Source of the DNA: Chitinophaga caeni
Lineage (GTDB): Bacteria; Bacteroidota; Bacteroidia; Chitinophagales; Chitinophagaceae
DNA: 64,000 nt
Direction: 5' to 3'
NCBI RefSeq assembly: GCF_002557795.1
Contig: NZ_CP023777.1
Coordinates: forward strand, 1,178,001-1,242,000
Shown here: positions 8,789 through 63,178 of the stretch, piece after piece
Layout: every line of letters begins with the position of its first letter
How positions within the stretch are numbered: position 1 is the first letter of the stretch
Translations under genes and position numbers: made by a program
Notes under the pieces: generated by a model
The model's input: the letters and a program-made list of their open reading frames with translations, nothing else
Told to the model about the DNA's origin: nothing
Database searches by the model: none

Positions 8789-10222
8789 ATGCGCAATCGT
8801 ATCCGGAACATCTTGGTTTTGATGGTTATTTGCATGTTGGGGATATTCCTGTTCCAGGGATATTGGGTATACCGTTCTTACAAAATTGTAATGGACCAGT
8901 TTAACAGGGATATCAATGATGCCCTGAGAACGGCCGTCTTCAATAAGCAATTTGCCGATGTAAAGCGGGTTGTCCGGTATGCCGATTCCTCTAACCTACA
9001 TAATTCAACAGAACTCCCCAGGGCAATCAAGCAGGTACTAAGCAGCTCGAAGATCAAGGATAATAAGTCCTATCAACAATTGAGGGTGTATTTTAATGAT
9101 TCGACTCAACAGAGCGATCCCAAACTGGACTCCCCGATCCAGGTGTATGCCGATACCTTGGCACGGCAGATCTCGGAGATATTAATTATCAATAATATTT
9201 ATAGTAACCGGCTGAGTTTGAAGAGATTGGATTCAGTGTATTCAGCGGAGCTAGCCAGCAGGGGCATCGTTGTTCAACACAATTTAGATACCCTCAATAT
9301 TGATTTTAACAATTTTGCCAGGGAAAGTTTTAGGGATAGCCTTCATATCGTGGAACATCTTAAAACCTTCAAAACCCCGTTTAATCCCGTGAGTAACCTG
9401 TTCGTGCAAGCAACATTCGAAACGCCGGTTCCGTACTTGCTCAAACAGATGCTTTGGTCGATTATCACATCGGCGCTGTTAACGATCCTGATTATCATCT
9501 GCCTCGTATACATGCTACGAACGATCCTAAAGCAGAAAAAGCTCAGCGAGGTGAAAAACGATTTCATCAACAATATGACGCATGAGCTGAAAACACCGAT
9601 TGCAACGGTCTTTGCAGCGGTAGAAGCCATGCAGAATTTCAACGCGTTGAACGATCAAAAGAAAACGCTAACCTACCTAGATATTTCAAAACAGCAATTA
9701 AACCGTTTGAGCGACCTAGTTGAAAAGGTATTGCATATCGCCGCGGAAGAAAAGGAAGATTTTGAATTATATGCCGAAGAATTTGATATCAACGAAGTGG
9801 TGGAAGATATCGTTTCAAACCATCAATTAAAAGCGGCAAAACCGGTACAATTCCATGTTAGTTTGCCGGAACAAGGCTTGGTGGTGGCAGACAAAACCCA
9901 TCTATCGAACGCCATTAACAACCTTGTAGATAACGCGATAAAATATTCTAAGGAAGAAGCAGATATTGATATCAAGGTAATCGTTGAGCAACAATTATTG
10001 ACGATCCATGTTAAAGATCATGGTATCGGTATACCGAAAAGCTACCATCAGAATATATTCGATAAGTTTTTCCGCGTCCCTACCGGTAACATTCACAATG
10101 TGAAAGGTTTCGGCCTCGGTTTAAGCTATGTAAAGAAAATCGTAGAAATGCACCAAGGTACGATACAGGTTCATAGCGAATCTGATAAGGGCAGCGAATT
10201 TATTATAACAATACCTTTTTAA
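8789..10222 (+). CDS. Sensor histidine kinase
   Basis: A 477-residue membrane kinase: TM1 at about 8-28, a roughly 190-residue extracytoplasmic sensor region without a recognised domain, TM2 at about 222-243, then HisKA with the phospho-acceptor in NNMTHELKTP (H265), N-box NLVDNAIKYS, G1 box DHGIGIP and G2 box GFGLGLSYVKK. All catalytic boxes are intact. It is followed 12 bp later by an OmpR-type response regulator, which is its likely partner. The stimulus is unknown. The upstream direct repeats suggest autoregulation. Confidence 0.93.
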   Translation: MRNRIRNILVLMVICMLGIFLFQGYWVYRSYKIVMDQFNRDINDALRTAVFNKQFADVKRVVRYADSSNLHNSTELPRAIKQVLSSSKIKDNKSYQQLRVYFNDSTQQSDPKLDSPIQVYADTLARQISEILIINNIYSNRLSLKRLDSVYSAELASRGIVVQHNLDTLNIDFNNFARESFRDSLHIVEHLKTFKTPFNPVSNLFVQATFETPVPYLLKQMLWSIITSALLTILIIICLVYMLRTILKQKKLSEVKNDFINNMTHELKTPIATVFAAVEAMQNFNALNDQKKTLTYLDISKQQLNRLSDLVEKVLHIAAEEKEDFELYAEEFDINEVVEDIVSNHQLKAAKPVQFHVSLPEQGLVVADKTHLSNAINNLVDNAIKYSKEEADIDIKVIVEQQLLTIHVKDHGIGIPKSYHQNIFDKFFRVPTGNIHNVKGFGLGLSYVKKIVEMHQGTIQVHSESDKGSEFIITIPF

Positions 10223-55303: not shown

Positions 55304-55319
55304 TGTTCCACGTGGAACA
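55304..55319. other. parS-like 16-bp palindrome, site 1
   Basis: TGTTCCACGTGGAACA is a perfect palindrome differing from the widely conserved parS TGTTTCACGTGAAACA at only one symmetric pair. Such sites bind ParB and cluster around the chromosome origin. Confidence 0.7.
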
Positions 55320-57512: not shown

Positions 57513-57528
57513 TGTTCCACGTGAAACA
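57513..57528. other. parS-like palindrome, site 2
   Basis: TGTTCCACGTGAAACA differs from the parS consensus TGTTTCACGTGAAACA at a single base. Confidence 0.75.
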
Positions 57529-57538
57529 TTGCCACAAT

Positions 57539-57568
57539 AAAAAAGAGTGTTCCACGTGGAACACTCTT
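57539..57568 (-). terminator. 26-bp palindrome: parS-like site 3 and ybeY terminator
   Basis: The core TGTTCCACGTGGAACA (57548-57563) is identical to site 1 and extends to a 26-bp perfect palindrome (57543-57568). A6 on its left side makes it, on the minus strand, an intrinsic terminator 21 bp after ybeY. One sequence may therefore serve both ParB binding and transcription end. Confidence 0.7.
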
Positions 57569-57589: not shown

Positions 57590-58015
57590 TCAAGCAAAAT
57601 ATAAGCTTAGATATTCGTCTTCTTTTTGTCGCATTAATTTCTCCTCAGTATCTGATTTATCTCTATATCCACATAAATGTAGCGCTCCGTGAAAAATAAC
57701 ACGGTGCAATTCCCTATTAAAACTTTCCTCAAAAGCCGTAGCATTTTCCTGAACTCTTTCAACGCTTATGTAAATTTCTCCTTCCGTAATATCCGGATTG
57801 GGAGACAATTCAAAAGTAATGATATCTGTATAAGTATCATGATCCAAAAACTGCTGATTAATTTCGAGCAGGTAAGCATCGGTACAGAAAACATATTGCA
57901 AATCTTGCAAACCCTGCGATTCCCTTTTAAAGAGTTCCGCTATAAACTTTTTTAACCTGGTTTTATCCTCTAAAACCAATTTTACATCAAGATTGGAAAA
58001 TCGAACTGCCATCAC
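57590..58015 (-). CDS. ybeY: Endoribonuclease YbeY
   Basis: A 141-residue rRNA maturation RNase. The zinc motif reads HGALHLCGYRDKSD: two His of the canonical H-x3-H-x5-H are present, but the third position is Asp. From memory this is a common variant in Bacteroidota. It also has the upstream DIITFEL strand. The second Met may be the true start. Upstream of mnmG on the same strand, separated by a terminator-like palindrome. Confidence 0.9.
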   Translation of the reverse strand: MMAVRFSNLDVKLVLEDKTRLKKFIAELFKRESQGLQDLQYVFCTDAYLLEINQQFLDHDTYTDIITFELSPNPDITEGEIYISVERVQENATAFEESFNRELHRVIFHGALHLCGYRDKSDTEEKLMRQKEDEYLSLYFA

Positions 58016-58071
58016 ATTGTATTTACATTTGTAAAAATATGGTGAAAATTCTGATTTACAGTCAATTCATT

Positions 58072-58102
58072 TTTGCATATTCAACGGACTAAGGTACTTT
58101 TG
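58072..58102 (+). promoter_or_regulatory. Bacteroidota promoter of feoA
   Basis: TTTG (58072-58075), 19-bp spacer, TACTTTTG (58095-58102). The leader to the chosen start is about 60 nt. Confidence 0.65.
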
Positions 58103-58170
58103 CATCGTAATTGCTTGTTGGCATTTATATGGGAATAGTTCCATTTATCTGGTTCCTTAATTCATATGAC

Positions 58171-58419
58171 ATGGTAAAATTGTCTTCACTAAGTATCGGG
58201 AAAAGTGCTGTAATCCGTGAGTTCGAAAAAGATGATATTCACATCAAATTAATGGAAATGGGCTGCGTTCCCGGTGAAGTAGTAAAAATTGAGAAAATAG
58301 CTCCACTAGGAGATCCGATTTCAATAACCGTTGCCGGCTATAATTTGTCACTCAGGAAAACTGAAGCCGATTTCATTTGGGTTGAAGAAGTTCAGGGCTT
58401 AGTAGGCTTAGAAGATTAA
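58171..58419 (+). CDS. feoA: Ferrous iron transport protein A
   Basis: An 82-residue SH3-like FeoA protein (KLSSLSIGKSAVIREF..., LMEMGCVPGEVVKIEKIAPLGDPISITVAGYNLSLRKTEADFIWV). I choose ATG 58171, as it gives the usual FeoA N-terminus; upstream in-frame ATGs would add a 20-residue hydrophobic leader. FeoA supports FeoB in Fe(II) uptake. Here it is a stand-alone gene about 22 kb from feoB. A strong terminator follows. Confidence 0.88.
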   Translation: MVKLSSLSIGKSAVIREFEKDDIHIKLMEMGCVPGEVVKIEKIAPLGDPISITVAGYNLSLRKTEADFIWVEEVQGLVGLED

Positions 58420-58429
58420 TAAAACTTAC

Positions 58430-59278
58430 TTAACTTGATATTTAAAATACTGCTAAGTCTAGCAGTATTTTTTTTTGCATAATAAAAAAATTTACTCTTT
58501 TATCCACACAGCACACAACGCGGAAAACGTAAAAGTAAGGCCCTTACATTTCAAAATATCAAACTATTGCGTGGTAACCACGGGTTAAACCAGATCATAG
58601 AATCCTAAGAGCCTTCGCTTAACAGGCTTCCTACATTCGCTCCAAAACGCGGAACCCATACTTATTCCTCTCACATAAAATTCTCAGATTCCTTAAAATG
58701 CAAGCCTCCCAAAAGCTCCTCGAAAGAAAATCCCCGGGGTCCATATTATATATTTAATTCTCAGCTCACTATAAAATAAATGCTCTCAAAATTGCATGGT
58801 TATCCACAGCATTGGGTAGCCACGAATAATAATTAATAGATTAATTCTCAAGGCATTAAAAAATCAACGCCATAAGAATTGCACATTAATTTCACACCTG
58901 TACCTATACTTACGCACATAAATCTCAGGCGCTTCCAAAATGAATCCATTGAGATTTGCATTGAAAACCTTTACCCGTGGTTACCACAGCACATGTGAAT
59001 AAAATAAAATCTCGCGGGCTTTAAAAGGAGCGTAGTAGTAAAAACGAAGGGCTTGACAATTGAATATTTCACATTATATCGCACTATTATACACAATAAT
59101 TCATTCTTAAAGCCTTAAATATGCATAATACCCAGGTATTATCCACAGTAATTCATTATAGATTCACATAAGATAATAAAGAACCAGGTATTTTTAATAC
59201 TGATAATCAATAAGTTATACAATTTAATAAAGAAATTACCCAGGTTTTATGTTATTCACAGGGTCAAAATAATAGCAC
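58430..59278. other. Left part of candidate chromosomal origin (DnaA-box region)
   Basis: About 850 bp without a gene. Perfect DnaA boxes TTATCCACA lie at 58500-58508, 58800-58808 and 59139-59147 (plus). TTATTCACA lies at 58994-59002 (minus) and 59252-59260 (plus). Three CCAGG sites (59132, 59184, 59239) sit with the right-hand boxes. A perfect 15-bp inverted repeat pair, GTGGTAACCACGGGT at 58571 and its complement at 58973-58987, frames the middle. Confidence 0.6.
58445..58476 (+). terminator. Rho-independent terminator of feoA
   Basis: AAATACTGCT, 6-nt loop, AGCAGTATTT and further T residues, 25 bp after feoA. Confidence 0.85.
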
Positions 59279-59310
59279 AAAAAAACCCGCATGAAATGAA
59301 CCATGCGGGT
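59279..59310 (-). terminator. Rho-independent terminator of nadA
   Basis: ACCCGCATG pairs with CATGCGGGT; the A-run on the left gives a U-run on the minus-strand transcript, 20 bp after nadA. Confidence 0.85.
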
Positions 59311-59330
59311 GAACTGGGATTTTAAATAGA

Positions 59331-60338
59331 TTATAATCCTGCGGCAGCGCTTATTTCGAGCATCCGATCGATTGGTTTCTTAGCCGCTAAGCGAAGATTT
59401 TCTTCCATCGTGATTTCCGGTTGTTCGTACTCCATGCACAAGTATAATTTTTCTAGTGTATTCAGCTTCATATGCGGACAATCGTTACAAGCACATGCAT
59501 TATTCGGAGGAGCAGGAATAAATGTTTTATTAGGGTTTTCCTTTTGCATCTGGTGCAAAATACCGGTTTCCGTCACAACGATGAATTCCTGGGCCGGATC
59601 CTTATGACTAAATTTCAGTAAACCCGTGGTAGACCCGATGAAATCGGCCACTTCCAAGATAGGCGCTTCACATTCAGGGTGTGCGATTACTTTTGCGCCC
59701 GGATGTTTTGCTTTAAGGTTCAATATTTTTTCCAGGGAGAAAATCTCGTGTACCATGCAGGCACCGTTCCACAACACCATATCCCTCCCCGTTTTCTTCT
59801 GTAGGTAAGCACCAAGATTCCTGTCCGGGGCAAATATGATCGGTTGATCTTTGGGAACACTTTCAATTATTTTCTCAGCATTTGATGAAGTGCAGATAAT
59901 ATCGCTCAACGCTTTGATACCGGCTGAACAGTTGATATAAGAAATCACGATATGATCAGGATACTTGGCTTTGAACTTTTCAAATAGGGCAGGGGGAGCG
60001 CTATCGGCCAGGGAACAACCCGCTTTCAAATCAGGTAGCAGTACCTTTTTACCAGGATTTAAGATTTTGGCGGTTTCGGCCATGAAGTGCACACCTGCAA
60101 AAACGATCATGTCAGCATCTGTTTTAGCTGCGGCTTGTGCAAGCCCCAAGCTATCGCCAATATAATCTGCAACATCTTGTATATCCGGCTCCTGGTAATA
60201 GTGAGCCAACACAACGGCTTTCTTTTCTTTTTTCAACCGGGCAATCTCGGCAAAAAGATCCAGGCGCACATCAACGGGTATATCTAGAAAACCATTTTTT
60301 TGCAAATTTTTTTCTGCCTCCTTAAAAGCCGTAATCAT
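59331..60338 (-). CDS. nadA: Quinolinate synthase A
   Basis: A 335-residue 4Fe-4S enzyme that makes quinolinate from iminoaspartate and dihydroxyacetone phosphate. Cluster cysteines are probably C108 (AGCSLAD), C194 (NGACMVHE) and C287 (CNDCPHM). [27 protein letters not shown] is the family opening. I choose ATG 60338 ([10 protein letters not shown]); a longer frame from 60434 would begin before or at the predicted transcription start. It lies between two DnaA-box-rich stretches. nadB does not adjoin it. Confidence 0.95.
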
Positions 60339-60402
60339 AACTATAATTTCTTTTTTAATTTTTAAAAAAAATAAAGACCCATTACTATTAGGGGTGTGAG
60401 TT

Positions 60403-60960
60403 TGTGGATAGTGAAAAATCAAACACCGGTACAAAGGTACTTGTTATTATATTTTCGACAGCTATCCACATCAAATTAACAGGCTGTTTCCAGGCTGCTA
60501 TTGGAAAGTTCCAGGCTTATTCACAGCTGTGTATTTCTCTCCAGGTGGAAAAGTGTTAACCTGGTTAAGCCAGGTAAAAGTGTGAGTTTCGTTGGACAAT
60601 TATTCAGCCCCAAATACCAGGCAAATCCTGGGGAGAATAACAAATTATTTTTTACCTGCCTGGGAAGGGTGATTTTCCCACCGTTTTTTGACTTACCCAG
60701 GGGGTTACCAACAGCTTTTGTGGAAAAATTAACATCGAAATCCAAAAAGCTCCTTTTAGCCTTAAAACCGCTTATTTTAATAAAATATTTATCAATTTTC
60801 CACAAAATACTGTGGATTATTGATCAACAATTTATATTTTGTGGATAAGCCAGGGAGCAATGATATTCATGGAAATACACTACTCGTAAGGCAAACAGCA
60901 ACAAAAATAAACCTAATTTTATAACCCTCTTGAAATGTCAACATGTGAATAAGATGTGAA
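60403..60960. other. Right part of candidate chromosomal origin (DnaA boxes, CCWGG cluster)
   Basis: Non-coding stretch between nadA and ppiD. DnaA-box matches: TTATTCACA at 60517-60525 (plus), TTATCCACA at 60840-60848 (minus), TTATTCACA at 60944-60952 (minus), plus one-mismatch forms at 60403-60411, 60462-60470 and 60811-60819. Ten CCAGG/CCTGG sites fall between 60490 and 60854. A very A+T-rich stretch follows (about 61000-61095), as expected for an unwinding element. Open frames here have no family likeness. Confidence 0.6.
60432..60439 (-). promoter_or_regulatory. -7 promoter element of nadA
   Basis: On the minus strand TACCTTTG matches TAnnTTTG, about 95 bp before the nadA start. A DnaA-box-like site (60462-60470) lies in the -33 region, so DnaA could affect this promoter. 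Confidence 0.5.
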
Positions 60961-61035
60961 AGAACTCCCGACCTCATGAAAGGCTCATATGCTTAAATCC
61001 TTTACTGCATTGGATTTACAACATTTAAAAGCTAT

Positions 61036-61066
61036 TTTGCTTTACAGTAATTTTATTTTATTTTTG
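61036..61066 (+). promoter_or_regulatory. Bacteroidota promoter of the PpiD-like gene
   Basis: TTTG (61036-61039), 19-bp spacer, TATTTTTG (61059-61066), about 30 bp before the start codon. Confidence 0.65.
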
Positions 61067-61096
61067 CTTTCCTTTAAAATTTAGACTATATAATAT

Positions 61097-63178
61097 ATGT
61101 CACTTATTCAGAAAATCAGGGACAAGTATGCTACGATGACCGTGGTAGTTATTTGCTTGGCGATTGTAGGTTTCTTATTACAAGACGCTTTCTTCGGAAA
61201 AGGTTCCTTAATGGGCTCTAGTACTTCCGTTGGTGAAGTGAATGGTAAAGAGTTAGATATTGCCCAGTACAATAATATGATCGACATAGCCGAAAGGAAT
61301 CAAGCGGCTCAATACCAGTTGGACATGGATGAGTCTATGCGCCAAAGCATTCGTGAGCAAGTATGGCAACAGTTCATCAACCAGCAGATCTTATCTGAAG
61401 AGTATGAAAAGTTGGGTATCGTTGTCACCGATGAAGAGGTAACCGATCAGTTTTTAGGAAACAATCCTAACCCGCAGATCGTTCAGATGTTTACCGATCC
61501 TAAAACCGGTGTGTTCAACCGCGAGATGATGATCCAAGCAATTCAATCGGGCCAGTACAGCCAAGATTTCTTGAATTTGGAGCAAGGTATTAAACAACAA
61601 CAGTATACTACTAAGTATTTGGCGTTGGTTACTAAAGCTATCAATTATCCTAAATGGATGCAGGAATTGCAAGTTAAAGATGGTGAGAAAGCTGCTAATA
61701 TATCTTATATACAAGTTCCATATGCTTCTATAGCAGATAGCACCATTAAATTGACTGATGCCGAGTTGAATGATTATATTCAGAAACATAAAGATTTATT
61801 CCCAGCTGAAGAGAGCCGCAGGGTAGAATTTATTTCTTTCGATGCGATTCCTTCCGCGAAAGATACTACCGCGGTATTAGAATCGTTAGCTAACTTGAAA
61901 TCAGCCATGGACAGTTTATCTAATGATGATATCCCTACTTTTATCAATGCTAACTCTGATAATAAATATTTTGATGCTTATGTTCCTTTGAGCATTATCC
62001 GTGTTCCCGAAATTGATTCTATCAAAGCATTGAGTATCGGGCAAACATACGGTCCTTACTTTGATGGCGGTTTAATAACATATGCTAAAATGGTGGATCG
62101 CAAAACATTGCCGGATACCGTTGAAGTAAGGTATATTGCTATGAGTAGCCAACCCGCTATTGATTCGGCAGTAAAAGCCAGAATTGATAGCATAAGCACC
62201 GTAATTAAAAATGGCGGTGACTTTGCGGCCTTGGCCAGCGAGTTCTCTGAAGATAATTCTACCGCTCAAAACGGAGGAAAGTTCACAGTTACTCCCGCAG
62301 GTAATTTCTTTGAAGAAGGAAAGGATTTTGCATTGAATGGAAAGAAAAACGAATTAAAAGTTATCAAAACTAATTTTGGTTACTTGTTAATGCAGATAAT
62401 GGAACAAAAGAATTTCGGAACTGCATTAAAAGTGGCTTACCTGTCTAAAAAAGTTGAACCAAGTCAAGAAACTTCAAGGGCGGCATATGCTAAAGCAAGC
62501 GACTTTGCAAGTAAAAACAGGGATCGTAAAACTTTTGATAATACTATCCGTGAGGAAGGTCTCAATAAAGGAATTTCTGAAGACATCCGCCCAATGGATT
62601 TCGTAATCCCTGGTGTAGGATCTGCGCGTGACCTTGTACGTTGGGCTTACAGCGCCAATATCGGTGATGTTAGCGGCGTATTTACAGTTGATTACAAAAA
62701 TGTAGTAGCTGTATTAACAAATGTAACCGATAAAGGTACCTTAAGCTTGAATGAAGTACGTCCTAGGGTTGAAGCGGAAGTTAGGAAAATTAAAAAGGCA
62801 GACCAGATCATCAGCAAGTTAAAAAATCCTGCTACTATTGAAGCTGCCGCGGAAGCGACTTCACAGCCAATTCAAAAAACAGAAGGGGTAACCTTTACAA
62901 TGCCGTCTATTGCTTCTATTGGTTATGAACCACGTATTGCCGGCGCCGCGTTCAATAAAAACTGGGGTGTTGGTAAAGTAAGCGCTGCCATTGAAGGTAA
63001 CACCGGCGTATTCGTAATCAAGGTTGATGAATATGTAGGTAGCGAGCAACCAAAACCAGAATACGAAAATCAACGTAAGATTTACGAACAATCTTTAAGC
63101 AACTTCTGGATGAATCAATTGTCGGAAGTATTCCGTAAGAAAGCGGATGTTGAAGATAACCGTGCGAAATTCTTCTAA
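61097..63178 (+). CDS. PpiD/SurA-like peptidyl-prolyl isomerase foldase
   Basis: A 693-residue periplasmic foldase anchored by one N-terminal TM (about 14-33; VVVICLAIVGFLL). The SurA_N-type domain spans about 40-190 (VGEVNGKELDIAQYNNMIDIAERN; IREQVWQQFINQQILSEEYEKLGIVVTDEEV), and a parvulin-type PPIase domain lies near 345-440 (VEVRYIAMSSQPAIDSAVKARIDSISTVIKNGGDFAALASEFSEDNSTAQNGG). A second, less clear parvulin-like region follows. It assists folding of envelope proteins. Length is in the range of PpiD-like proteins. A perfect terminator follows. Confidence 0.9.
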   Translation: MSLIQKIRDKYATMTVVVICLAIVGFLLQDAFFGKGSLMGSSTSVGEVNGKELDIAQYNNMIDIAERNQAAQYQLDMDESMRQSIREQVWQQFINQQILSEEYEKLGIVVTDEEVTDQFLGNNPNPQIVQMFTDPKTGVFNREMMIQAIQSGQYSQDFLNLEQGIKQQQYTTKYLALVTKAINYPKWMQELQVKDGEKAANISYIQVPYASIADSTIKLTDAELNDYIQKHKDLFPAEESRRVEFISFDAIPSAKDTTAVLESLANLKSAMDSLSNDDIPTFINANSDNKYFDAYVPLSIIRVPEIDSIKALSIGQTYGPYFDGGLITYAKMVDRKTLPDTVEVRYIAMSSQPAIDSAVKARIDSISTVIKNGGDFAALASEFSEDNSTAQNGGKFTVTPAGNFFEEGKDFALNGKKNELKVIKTNFGYLLMQIMEQKNFGTALKVAYLSKKVEPSQETSRAAYAKASDFASKNRDRKTFDNTIREEGLNKGISEDIRPMDFVIPGVGSARDLVRWAYSANIGDVSGVFTVDYKNVVAVLTNVTDKGTLSLNEVRPRVEAEVRKIKKADQIISKLKNPATIEAAAEATSQPIQKTEGVTFTMPSIASIGYEPRIAGAAFNKNWGVGKVSAAIEGNTGVFVIKVDEYVGSEQPKPEYENQRKIYEQSLSNFWMNQLSEVFRKKADVEDNRAKFF

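What the first reader, a model, noticed from the sequence alone, without database searches (positions are those of the whole stretch)
58430..61096. Candidate bipartite replication origin with nadA between its two halves
Two non-coding stretches flanking nadA carry eight matches to TTATCCACA/TTATTCACA and three one-mismatch forms, on both strands, plus an A+T-rich stretch before ppiD. parS-like sites lie 1-3 kb away around mnmG. Genes to the left are mostly leftward and to the right mostly rightward, as around an origin. Bipartite origins split by a gene are known (dnaA in Bacillus and Helicobacter); a split by nadA would be new to me. Seen directly: boxes and gene directions. Inferred: origin function.
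Basis: partly seen in the sequence, partly recalled or inferred. Interest (0 to 1): 0.8.

Follow-up and report, generated by a model that had tools for sequence, protein, structure and literature searches.

The report
Chromosome origin beside nadA, lopsided halves
This is very probably the place where a Chitinophaga-like bacterium starts copying its chromosome; the working core looks to lie on one side of the gene nadA, while the other side is a fast-changing stretch with extra initiator-binding sites and remnants of an unexplained repeated motif.

Summary
The boxes are real: 8 TTATYCACA and 3 further TTWTNCACA sites in 2.67 kb. Origin location is well supported. In the 5.28-Mb, one-contig genome the local cumulative GC-skew minimum is at window 61109, and the only three perfect parS sites lie 0.9-3.1 kb left of the interval. 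dnaA is 763 kb away. The halves are unequal. The right half (nadA-ppiD, 60339-61096) keeps its length (751-768 bp in 25 genomes), phased DnaA boxes and, at its nadA end, a box-pair/CCCC/DnaA-trio/A+T element seen in 31 of 31 genus rows. It looks like a complete origin core. The left half (nadA-feoA) is 0.3-2.7 kb and has no TTWTNCACA box in 10 of 25 genomes. The A+T stretch before ppiD fits a promoter better than the unwinding site. So the origin is supported; an obligate bipartite origin is not. Unexpected: in relatives the left region carries a 31-bp dyad, ATTSTCA-N17-TGASAAT, nearly exclusive to it (37 of 39 hits in 25 genomes), and in two sister genomes a DnaA-box array of about 62-bp period. 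This genome has degenerate dyad traces. No experiment was available.

The parts
60339..61096 (.). oriC core (right half): nadA-ppiD intergenic region
   Evidence: 758 bp here, 751-768 bp in 25 genomes, box-enriched in 25 of 25; skew minimum at 61109
60378..60411 (-). BUS-like module: box CTATCCACA (60403-60411), degenerate box AAACTCACA (60395-60403), CCCC (60391-60394), DnaA-trio run TAATAGTAATGGG (60378-60390)
   Evidence: sequence; trio motif in 31 of 31 genus rows; among the most conserved columns; only match with fewer than 2 mismatches in this genome; 12 bp from the better box to the trios, published peak 10-13 bp
60339..60377 (.). A+T-rich stretch beside the BUS, up to the nadA start codon: most likely unwinding element
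   Evidence: 92% A+T; first 45 bp of the region average 80% A+T, minimum 71%, over 27 rows
60462..60470 (+). DnaA box CTATCCACA
   Evidence: box with at most 1 mismatch to TTATNCACA at this column in 20 of 27 rows
60517..60525 (+). DnaA box TTATTCACA
   Evidence: 26 of 27 rows, same rule
60719..60727 (-). DnaA box TTTTCCACA
   Evidence: 26 of 27 rows
60796..60804 (+). DnaA box TTTTCCACA
   Evidence: 24 of 27 rows
60840..60848 (-). DnaA box TTATCCACA
   Evidence: 27 of 27 rows
60944..60952 (-). DnaA box TTATTCACA
   Evidence: 27 of 27 rows
60432..60439 (-). probable -7 element of the nadA promoter, TACCTTTG; the transcript would run through the BUS
   Evidence: sequence, conserved block in the alignment; consensus TAnnTTTG recalled
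   Evidence: sequence, conserved block; consensus recalled
58420..59330 (.). left flank (nadA-feoA): accessory region with DnaA boxes 58500+, 58800+, 58994-, 59087+, 59139+, 59252+
   Evidence: not conserved in length or boxes
59072..59260 (+). degenerate repeats about 52-56 bp apart; DnaA boxes at 59087, 59139, 59252; includes the least stable 50 bp of the interval (59189-59238)
   Evidence: repeat families D2-D4, stability scan
58677..58960 (+). four degenerate repeat copies 77-87 bp apart, related to the dyad family of the relatives
   Evidence: repeat family D1, 60-74% identity; half-site scores at 58754 and 58841, and a third at 59050 outside the repeats, 3 against 0.039 expected
55304..55319 (.). 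parS TGTTCCACGTGGAACA, between hemN and mnmG
   Evidence: ORFs
57513..57528 (.). parS TGTTCCACGTGAAACA, between mnmG and ybeY
   Evidence: ORFs
57548..57563 (.). parS TGTTCCACGTGGAACA, between mnmG and ybeY
   Evidence: ORFs
59331..60338 (-). nadA, between the two flanks
61097..63178 (+). ppiD, right border of the core
   Evidence: ORF, synteny; name not checked by a family scan

Best explanation
The locus is the chromosomal replication origin of this Chitinophaga-like bacterium. Its core is the nadA-ppiD intergenic region. DnaA binds the phased boxes there, passes from the box pair at 60395-60411 onto the DnaA-trios at 60378-60390, and opens the A+T-rich DNA at the nadA start; forks then leave both ways. 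ParB on the three parS sites toward mnmG handles segregation of the new origins. The nadA-feoA flank is an accessory, fast-evolving region that holds extra DnaA, and in relatives probably a second dimeric protein, tuning initiation or local origin structure; it is not a conserved, obligate second half. Shown: positions, conservation, skew, parS, rarity of the BUS motif. Inferred: DnaA binding, unwinding, the role of the left flank.
For: Skew: minimum at 61109 in 302 kb of contiguous sequence; of 60 sampled stretches, 25 of 27 on the right arm are positive and 32 of 33 on the left arm negative; opposite turn near 3.757 Mb, 2.52 Mb away. parS: every perfect site lies within 6 kb of nadA in 5 of 5 one-contig genus genomes. 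G013: skew minimum inside nadA over 54 kb. Right half: box columns in 20-27 of 27 rows; trio motif in 31 of 31 genus rows; a BUS-like motif upstream of nadA in 24 of 26 named loci holding ppiD, 4 of 47 without it, 2 hits elsewhere in the 26. A perfect or one-mismatch match sits at nadA and nowhere else in 5 of 5 genomes. Box-pair and spacer anatomy agree with the published BUS (passages of PMC8287927). Own DnaA ends in an ordinary-looking region with RDHTTV (meaning recalled).
Against: No binding, unwinding or marker-frequency data. In G006 the minimum over 54 kb is at 4854886, about 21 kb from nadA. Three of 60 samples here have the wrong sign (660001, 2112001, 3564001). Right-hand genes are not mostly rightward. 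The left flank holds a perfect box near the least stable 50 bp of the interval, so an unwinding site there is not excluded. The BUS regular expression was written after seeing the genus motif, and at 2 mismatches the motif is at chance level (reversed-pattern control 1-5 hits per genome).
Confidence: 0.82

Rival explanations
1. True bipartite origin: both flanks of nadA are needed. DnaA bound on the left boxes loops over nadA and helps load DnaA at the right-hand unwinding site, as proposed for split origins.
For: This genome fits the anatomical definition: 6 and 5 boxes flank nadA, each above 200 of 200 shuffles; the left flank has its own very unstable stretch. In 13 of 25 genomes the left flank is box-enriched, 89 boxes in all against 5.5 expected, so DnaA boxes are present there more than chance would give.
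Against: 10 of 25 genus genomes have no TTWTNCACA box on the left, and length and box positions are not conserved. Left-flank similarity of this genome to other species is limited to short pieces of up to 38 bp, while right-half matches (which include 30 bp of ppiD) reach 120-170 bp.
Confidence: 0.15
2. The left flank is a DnaA control cluster rather than part of the origin: an array that holds or resets DnaA (in the manner of datA, DARS or other titration clusters), kept beside oriC and expanded by tandem duplication in some species.
For: 21 boxes at steps of 61-64 bp in G015 and 14 in a similar array in G021; repeats of about 52-56 bp with boxes in this genome; variable between species.
Against: No IHF or other partner site was tested; nothing shows ATP-DnaA hydrolysis, exchange or titration; no boxes in 10 of 25 genomes. 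What I say of the E. coli clusters is from search listings only.
Confidence: 0.3
3. Not the origin: the boxes are DnaA-controlled promoter sites of nadA and ppiD, and skew and parS point to an origin elsewhere nearby.
For: Probable promoters of both genes lie inside the right half; DnaA can act as a transcription factor (PMC8203912, search listing).
Against: Skew minimum 13 bp outside the interval, every perfect parS beside nadA in 5 of 5 genomes, BUS motif found at fewer than 2 mismatches only here, richest box stretch among 321 sampled intergenic stretches.
Confidence: 0.03
4. The left-flank dyads of the relatives are not protein sites but RNA or DNA hairpins, or relics of a mobile palindrome (REP or MITE type).
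For: Single elements fold well, e.g. -32.8 kcal/mol for one in G010; the left flank evolves fast.
Against: No covariation between arms in 37 elements: inner pairs 83 of 185 against 84.9 by column shuffle and 84.7 by arm swap. Not dispersed: 37 of 39 genome-wide matches lie in this one interval. No Rfam match above a gathering score.
Confidence: 0.12

Closest known systems
Bipartite oriC of Bacillus subtilis and Helicobacter pylori
   Same: Two DnaA-box clusters flank a gene, and one side carries the unwinding element (definition from passages of PMC4285127).
   Different: Spacer gene is nadA, dnaA is 763 kb away, and the second cluster is not conserved within the genus.
Basal unwinding system (BUS): DnaA-box pair plus DnaA-trios
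   Same: Better box upstream, degenerate box next to it, short GC spacer, trios reading TAA/TAG, 12 bp from better box to trios; passages of PMC8287927 and PMC6669920.
   Different: No difference in kind seen; activity untested. It lies in the probable nadA leader, so nadA transcription would cross it (inferred).
Predicted Bacteroidota origins distant from dnaA, e.g. Elizabethkingia meningoseptica
   Same: DnaA-box cluster and A+T-rich DNA far from dnaA (passages of PMC8994065).
   Different: That paper predicts by program, for a species of another family; the gene neighbourhood there was not compared.
datA, DARS and other DnaA-box clusters outside oriC
   Same: Box clusters that could hold DnaA (search listings only).
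   Different: Here the cluster adjoins oriC, is variable, and in two genomes is a tandem array; partner sites untested.

Membership tests
DnaA-dependent chromosomal origin (oriC) | GC-skew minimum at the locus | tested here: met
   61109 in 302 contiguous kb (10 kb of it masked), sign pattern in 60 samples
DnaA-dependent chromosomal origin (oriC) | DnaA-box cluster denser than elsewhere in the genome | tested here: met
   1.264 Mb sampled, shuffles
DnaA-dependent chromosomal origin (oriC) | A+T-rich or unstable stretch next to boxes | tested here: met
   60339-60377, 92% A+T; 60341-60390 in the least stable 0.2% of the window
DnaA-dependent chromosomal origin (oriC) | parS sites nearby | tested here: met
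   all three perfect sites of the genome
DnaA-dependent chromosomal origin (oriC) | DnaA binding, strand opening, marker-frequency peak, autonomous replication | not testable with these tools
   needs experiment or read coverage
Basal unwinding system (BUS) | Box within 16 bp of at least three DnaA-trios | tested here: met
   TAA TAG TAA, 12 bp from CTATCCACA (rule)
Basal unwinding system (BUS) | DnaA-dependent unwinding | not testable with these tools
   needs assay
Bipartite oriC | Two DnaA-box subregions split by a gene, one with the DUE | tested here: met
   by sequence, in this genome (definition)
Bipartite oriC | Both subregions kept among close relatives | tested here: not met
   left flank without boxes in 10 of 25 genomes
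Bipartite oriC | Both subregions needed for initiation | not testable with these tools
   needs deletion or plasmid test
datA/DARS-type DnaA control cluster | Box cluster plus partner-protein site and effect on DnaA nucleotide state | not tested
   only the boxes were counted
Structured RNA or hairpin array (left-flank dyad) | Covariation between arms | tested here: not met
   37 elements, no excess over shuffles
REP or MITE repeat (left-flank dyad) | Dispersed genome-wide copies | tested here: not met
   37 of 39 matches in one interval

The most novel reading that the evidence does not exclude
The nadA-feoA flank is a dedicated origin-side control region of Chitinophaga. An unidentified dimeric DNA-binding protein reads an array of 31-bp dyads (ATTCTCAGCGC-N9-GCGCTGAGAAT type, half-sites 23 bp apart, often repeating at about 82 bp) placed between the oriC core and parS, and works with a variable DnaA-box array to set initiation or origin compaction. 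This genome keeps a degenerate form.
Probability: 0.35. Interest if true: 0.75.

Novelty: new variant of a known kind. Interest (0 to 1): 0.5.

Why it matters
It gives a concrete, conserved origin core and unwinding site, far from dnaA, for a group where the searches made listed no paper that I recognised as describing it. The two-flank comparison separates what is kept (box phasing, BUS) from what drifts. The dyad array and the DnaA-box array suggest an origin-side regulatory region that grows and decays within one genus, which is directly testable by deletion and footprinting.

Tried and rejected
1) Obligate bipartite origin: not kept among relatives. 2) A+T stretch before ppiD as the unwinding site: reads as a promoter; not excluded as a secondary site. 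3) Gene orientation as evidence: fails outside the window. 4) RNA: no Rfam match above gathering score in 58000-61400 or in three relatives' loci (two weak matches below gathering in L197, outside the nadA-feoA interval by my coordinates). 5) Dyads as hairpins: no covariation. 6) CCWGG (Dcm-like) sites: 10 in the right half here against 2.03 expected, but 0-3 in the relatives and up to 12 in another sampled window, so dropped. 7) My first dyad pattern had 16 instead of 17 unspecified bases. It serves as a spacing control: 6 dyads in 4 of 25 genus genomes, none beside nadA, and matches in 37 of 298 order genomes, not located against nadA. The correct spacing was then searched in the 25 genus genomes only, not in the order. 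8) Tree of NadA plus PpiD: dyad-bearing genomes mostly fall together; L104 was placed on NadA alone and is unreliable; no test of label changes was made.

Rows dropped: searches used 27 of 31 rows (L099, L102, L103 left out as near-duplicates of G002, G012, G021; L104 because its ppiD match was partial). One search used 25: L099, L102, L103, L104 left out, and G002 and G005, whose fetched loci end before feoA. L101 and G023 are close relatives, so not independent. One search used 74 of the 80 loci (a capped list, 591 relatives; L173-L178 left out); L123 had too little upstream sequence and is not in the 26 + 47.

Full report
What was checked. The window is C1:1178001-1242000 of a one-contig genome of 5,279,921 bases. 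Genomes with the label 'same genus' include contigs whose lengths and match places equal named Chitinophaga records (G002 and L099; G021 and L103), so I call it Chitinophaga-like. The 8 + 3 DnaA boxes are at the stated places and far exceed what the rest of the genome sample and shuffles give.

Is it the origin? Sixty 20-kb stretches were taken from the genome. Over 302 contiguous kb (10 kb of it masked) the cumulative GC skew has its minimum at window 61109. On the right arm 25 of 27 stretches are positive, on the left arm 32 of 33 negative, and the opposite turn lies near 3.757 Mb. The only three perfect parS sites are beside the locus, and in 5 of 5 one-contig genus genomes every perfect parS site lies within 6 kb of nadA. 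dnaA is 763 kb away. In relative G013 the 54-kb skew minimum is inside nadA; in G006 it is about 21 kb off, although wider samples change sign across the locus. Together this makes the origin assignment strong but not experimental.

Which part works? The right half is 751-768 bp long in 25 genomes and enriched in boxes in 25 of 25. Six box columns are kept in 20 to 27 of 27 aligned rows. At its nadA end, on the minus strand, lies CTATCCACA AACTCACA CCCC TAATAGTAATGGG followed by 39 bp of 92% A+T up to the nadA start. The trio motif is present in 31 of 31 genus rows. Outside the genus, 19 of 20 named loci that hold ppiD also have a BUS-like motif upstream of nadA, inside it 5 of 6, and loci without ppiD have it in 4 of 47. 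The regular expression was written after seeing the genus motif, so these are not blind tests; the low rate elsewhere in the same loci (2 hits in the 26) is the control. In five whole genomes a match with at most one mismatch occurs only at nadA. The spacer of 12 bp from the better box to the trios agrees with the published peak of 10-13 bp. I therefore place the unwinding site at the nadA end, not before ppiD, where the sequence reads as a promoter (consensus recalled).

What is the left half? It runs from 337 to 2730 bp. Ten of 25 genomes have no box, 13 are enriched, and the sum is 89 boxes against 5.5 expected. In G015, 21 boxes follow each other at 61-64 bp, and G021 has 14 in a similar array. 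In this genome repeats of about 52-56 bp carry three of the boxes. A word count over the 25 left regions (39,570 bp) turned up another motif: ATTCTCAG occurs 103 times against 2.2 expected, in 16 of 25 genomes. It pairs as an inverted repeat with a fixed distance of 23 bp between half-site starts in 37 cases; one further case has 28. Searched with that spacing in 25 whole genomes, ATTSTCA-N17-TGASAAT has 39 matches in 12 genomes; 37 of them, in 11 genomes, lie in the nadA-feoA interval. With one base less spacing there are 6 matches, none there. Successive dyads often repeat at about 82 bp (23 + 59), sometimes 74. Arms do not covary, which favours a dimer-binding DNA site over a hairpin; elements were chosen by perfect outer half-sites, so only the inner positions are informative. 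This genome has no perfect dyad but three half-sites in the left flank against 0.039 expected, and four degenerate repeat copies 77-87 bp apart.

Reading. The locus is oriC with a conserved monopartite core on the right and a fast-evolving accessory flank on the left. The bipartite reading is allowed by the anatomy of this one genome but not supported by its relatives. The role of the left flank (DnaA reservoir, initiation control, origin architecture) is inferred.

Literature. I saw passages of PMC8287927, PMC6669920, PMC4285127, PMC6323995, PMC8994065 and PMC10225481 and otherwise search listings. Searches for nadA with origin terms, Chitinophaga with oriC and DnaA, oriC with Bacteroidetes and DoriC, and DnaA-trio with Bacteroidetes listed no paper that I recognised as describing this origin. 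The library holds only openly licensed papers, and origin databases themselves could not be searched, so an automatic prediction of this origin may well exist.

Noticed in passing
nadA-feoA interval of L185, L186, L188, L190, L191, L192, L193, L194, L195, L197, L200: 31-bp dyad ATTSTCA-N17-TGASAAT, often repeating at about 82 bp, 37 of 39 genome-wide matches in this interval; binding protein unknown.
   Followed up: partly
L197 about 9000-10150 and the nadA-feoA interval of L200: Tandem array of DnaA boxes with about 62-bp period beside the origin, 21 boxes in G015 and 14 in G021.
   Followed up: partly
window 60490-60854: Ten CCWGG sites in the right half against 2.03 expected, not shared by relatives.
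   Followed up: yes
L132-L164, upstream of nadA: In Pedobacter, Sphingobacterium and related loci nadA lies about 5.3-5.9 kb from mnmG with parS just beyond in many of them, and an A+T-rich CTAATAAACAA-type stretch precedes nadA in several; the origin may sit near nadA there too, not tested.
   Followed up: no
L201 and L202 (G006:C1:1-20000 and 800001-820000): Unusually strong positive GC skew, 0.239 and 0.132.
   Followed up: no
G000:C1:2112001-2132000 (L047): Skew of the wrong sign for its arm, -0.059; an inversion or insertion is possible.
   Followed up: no
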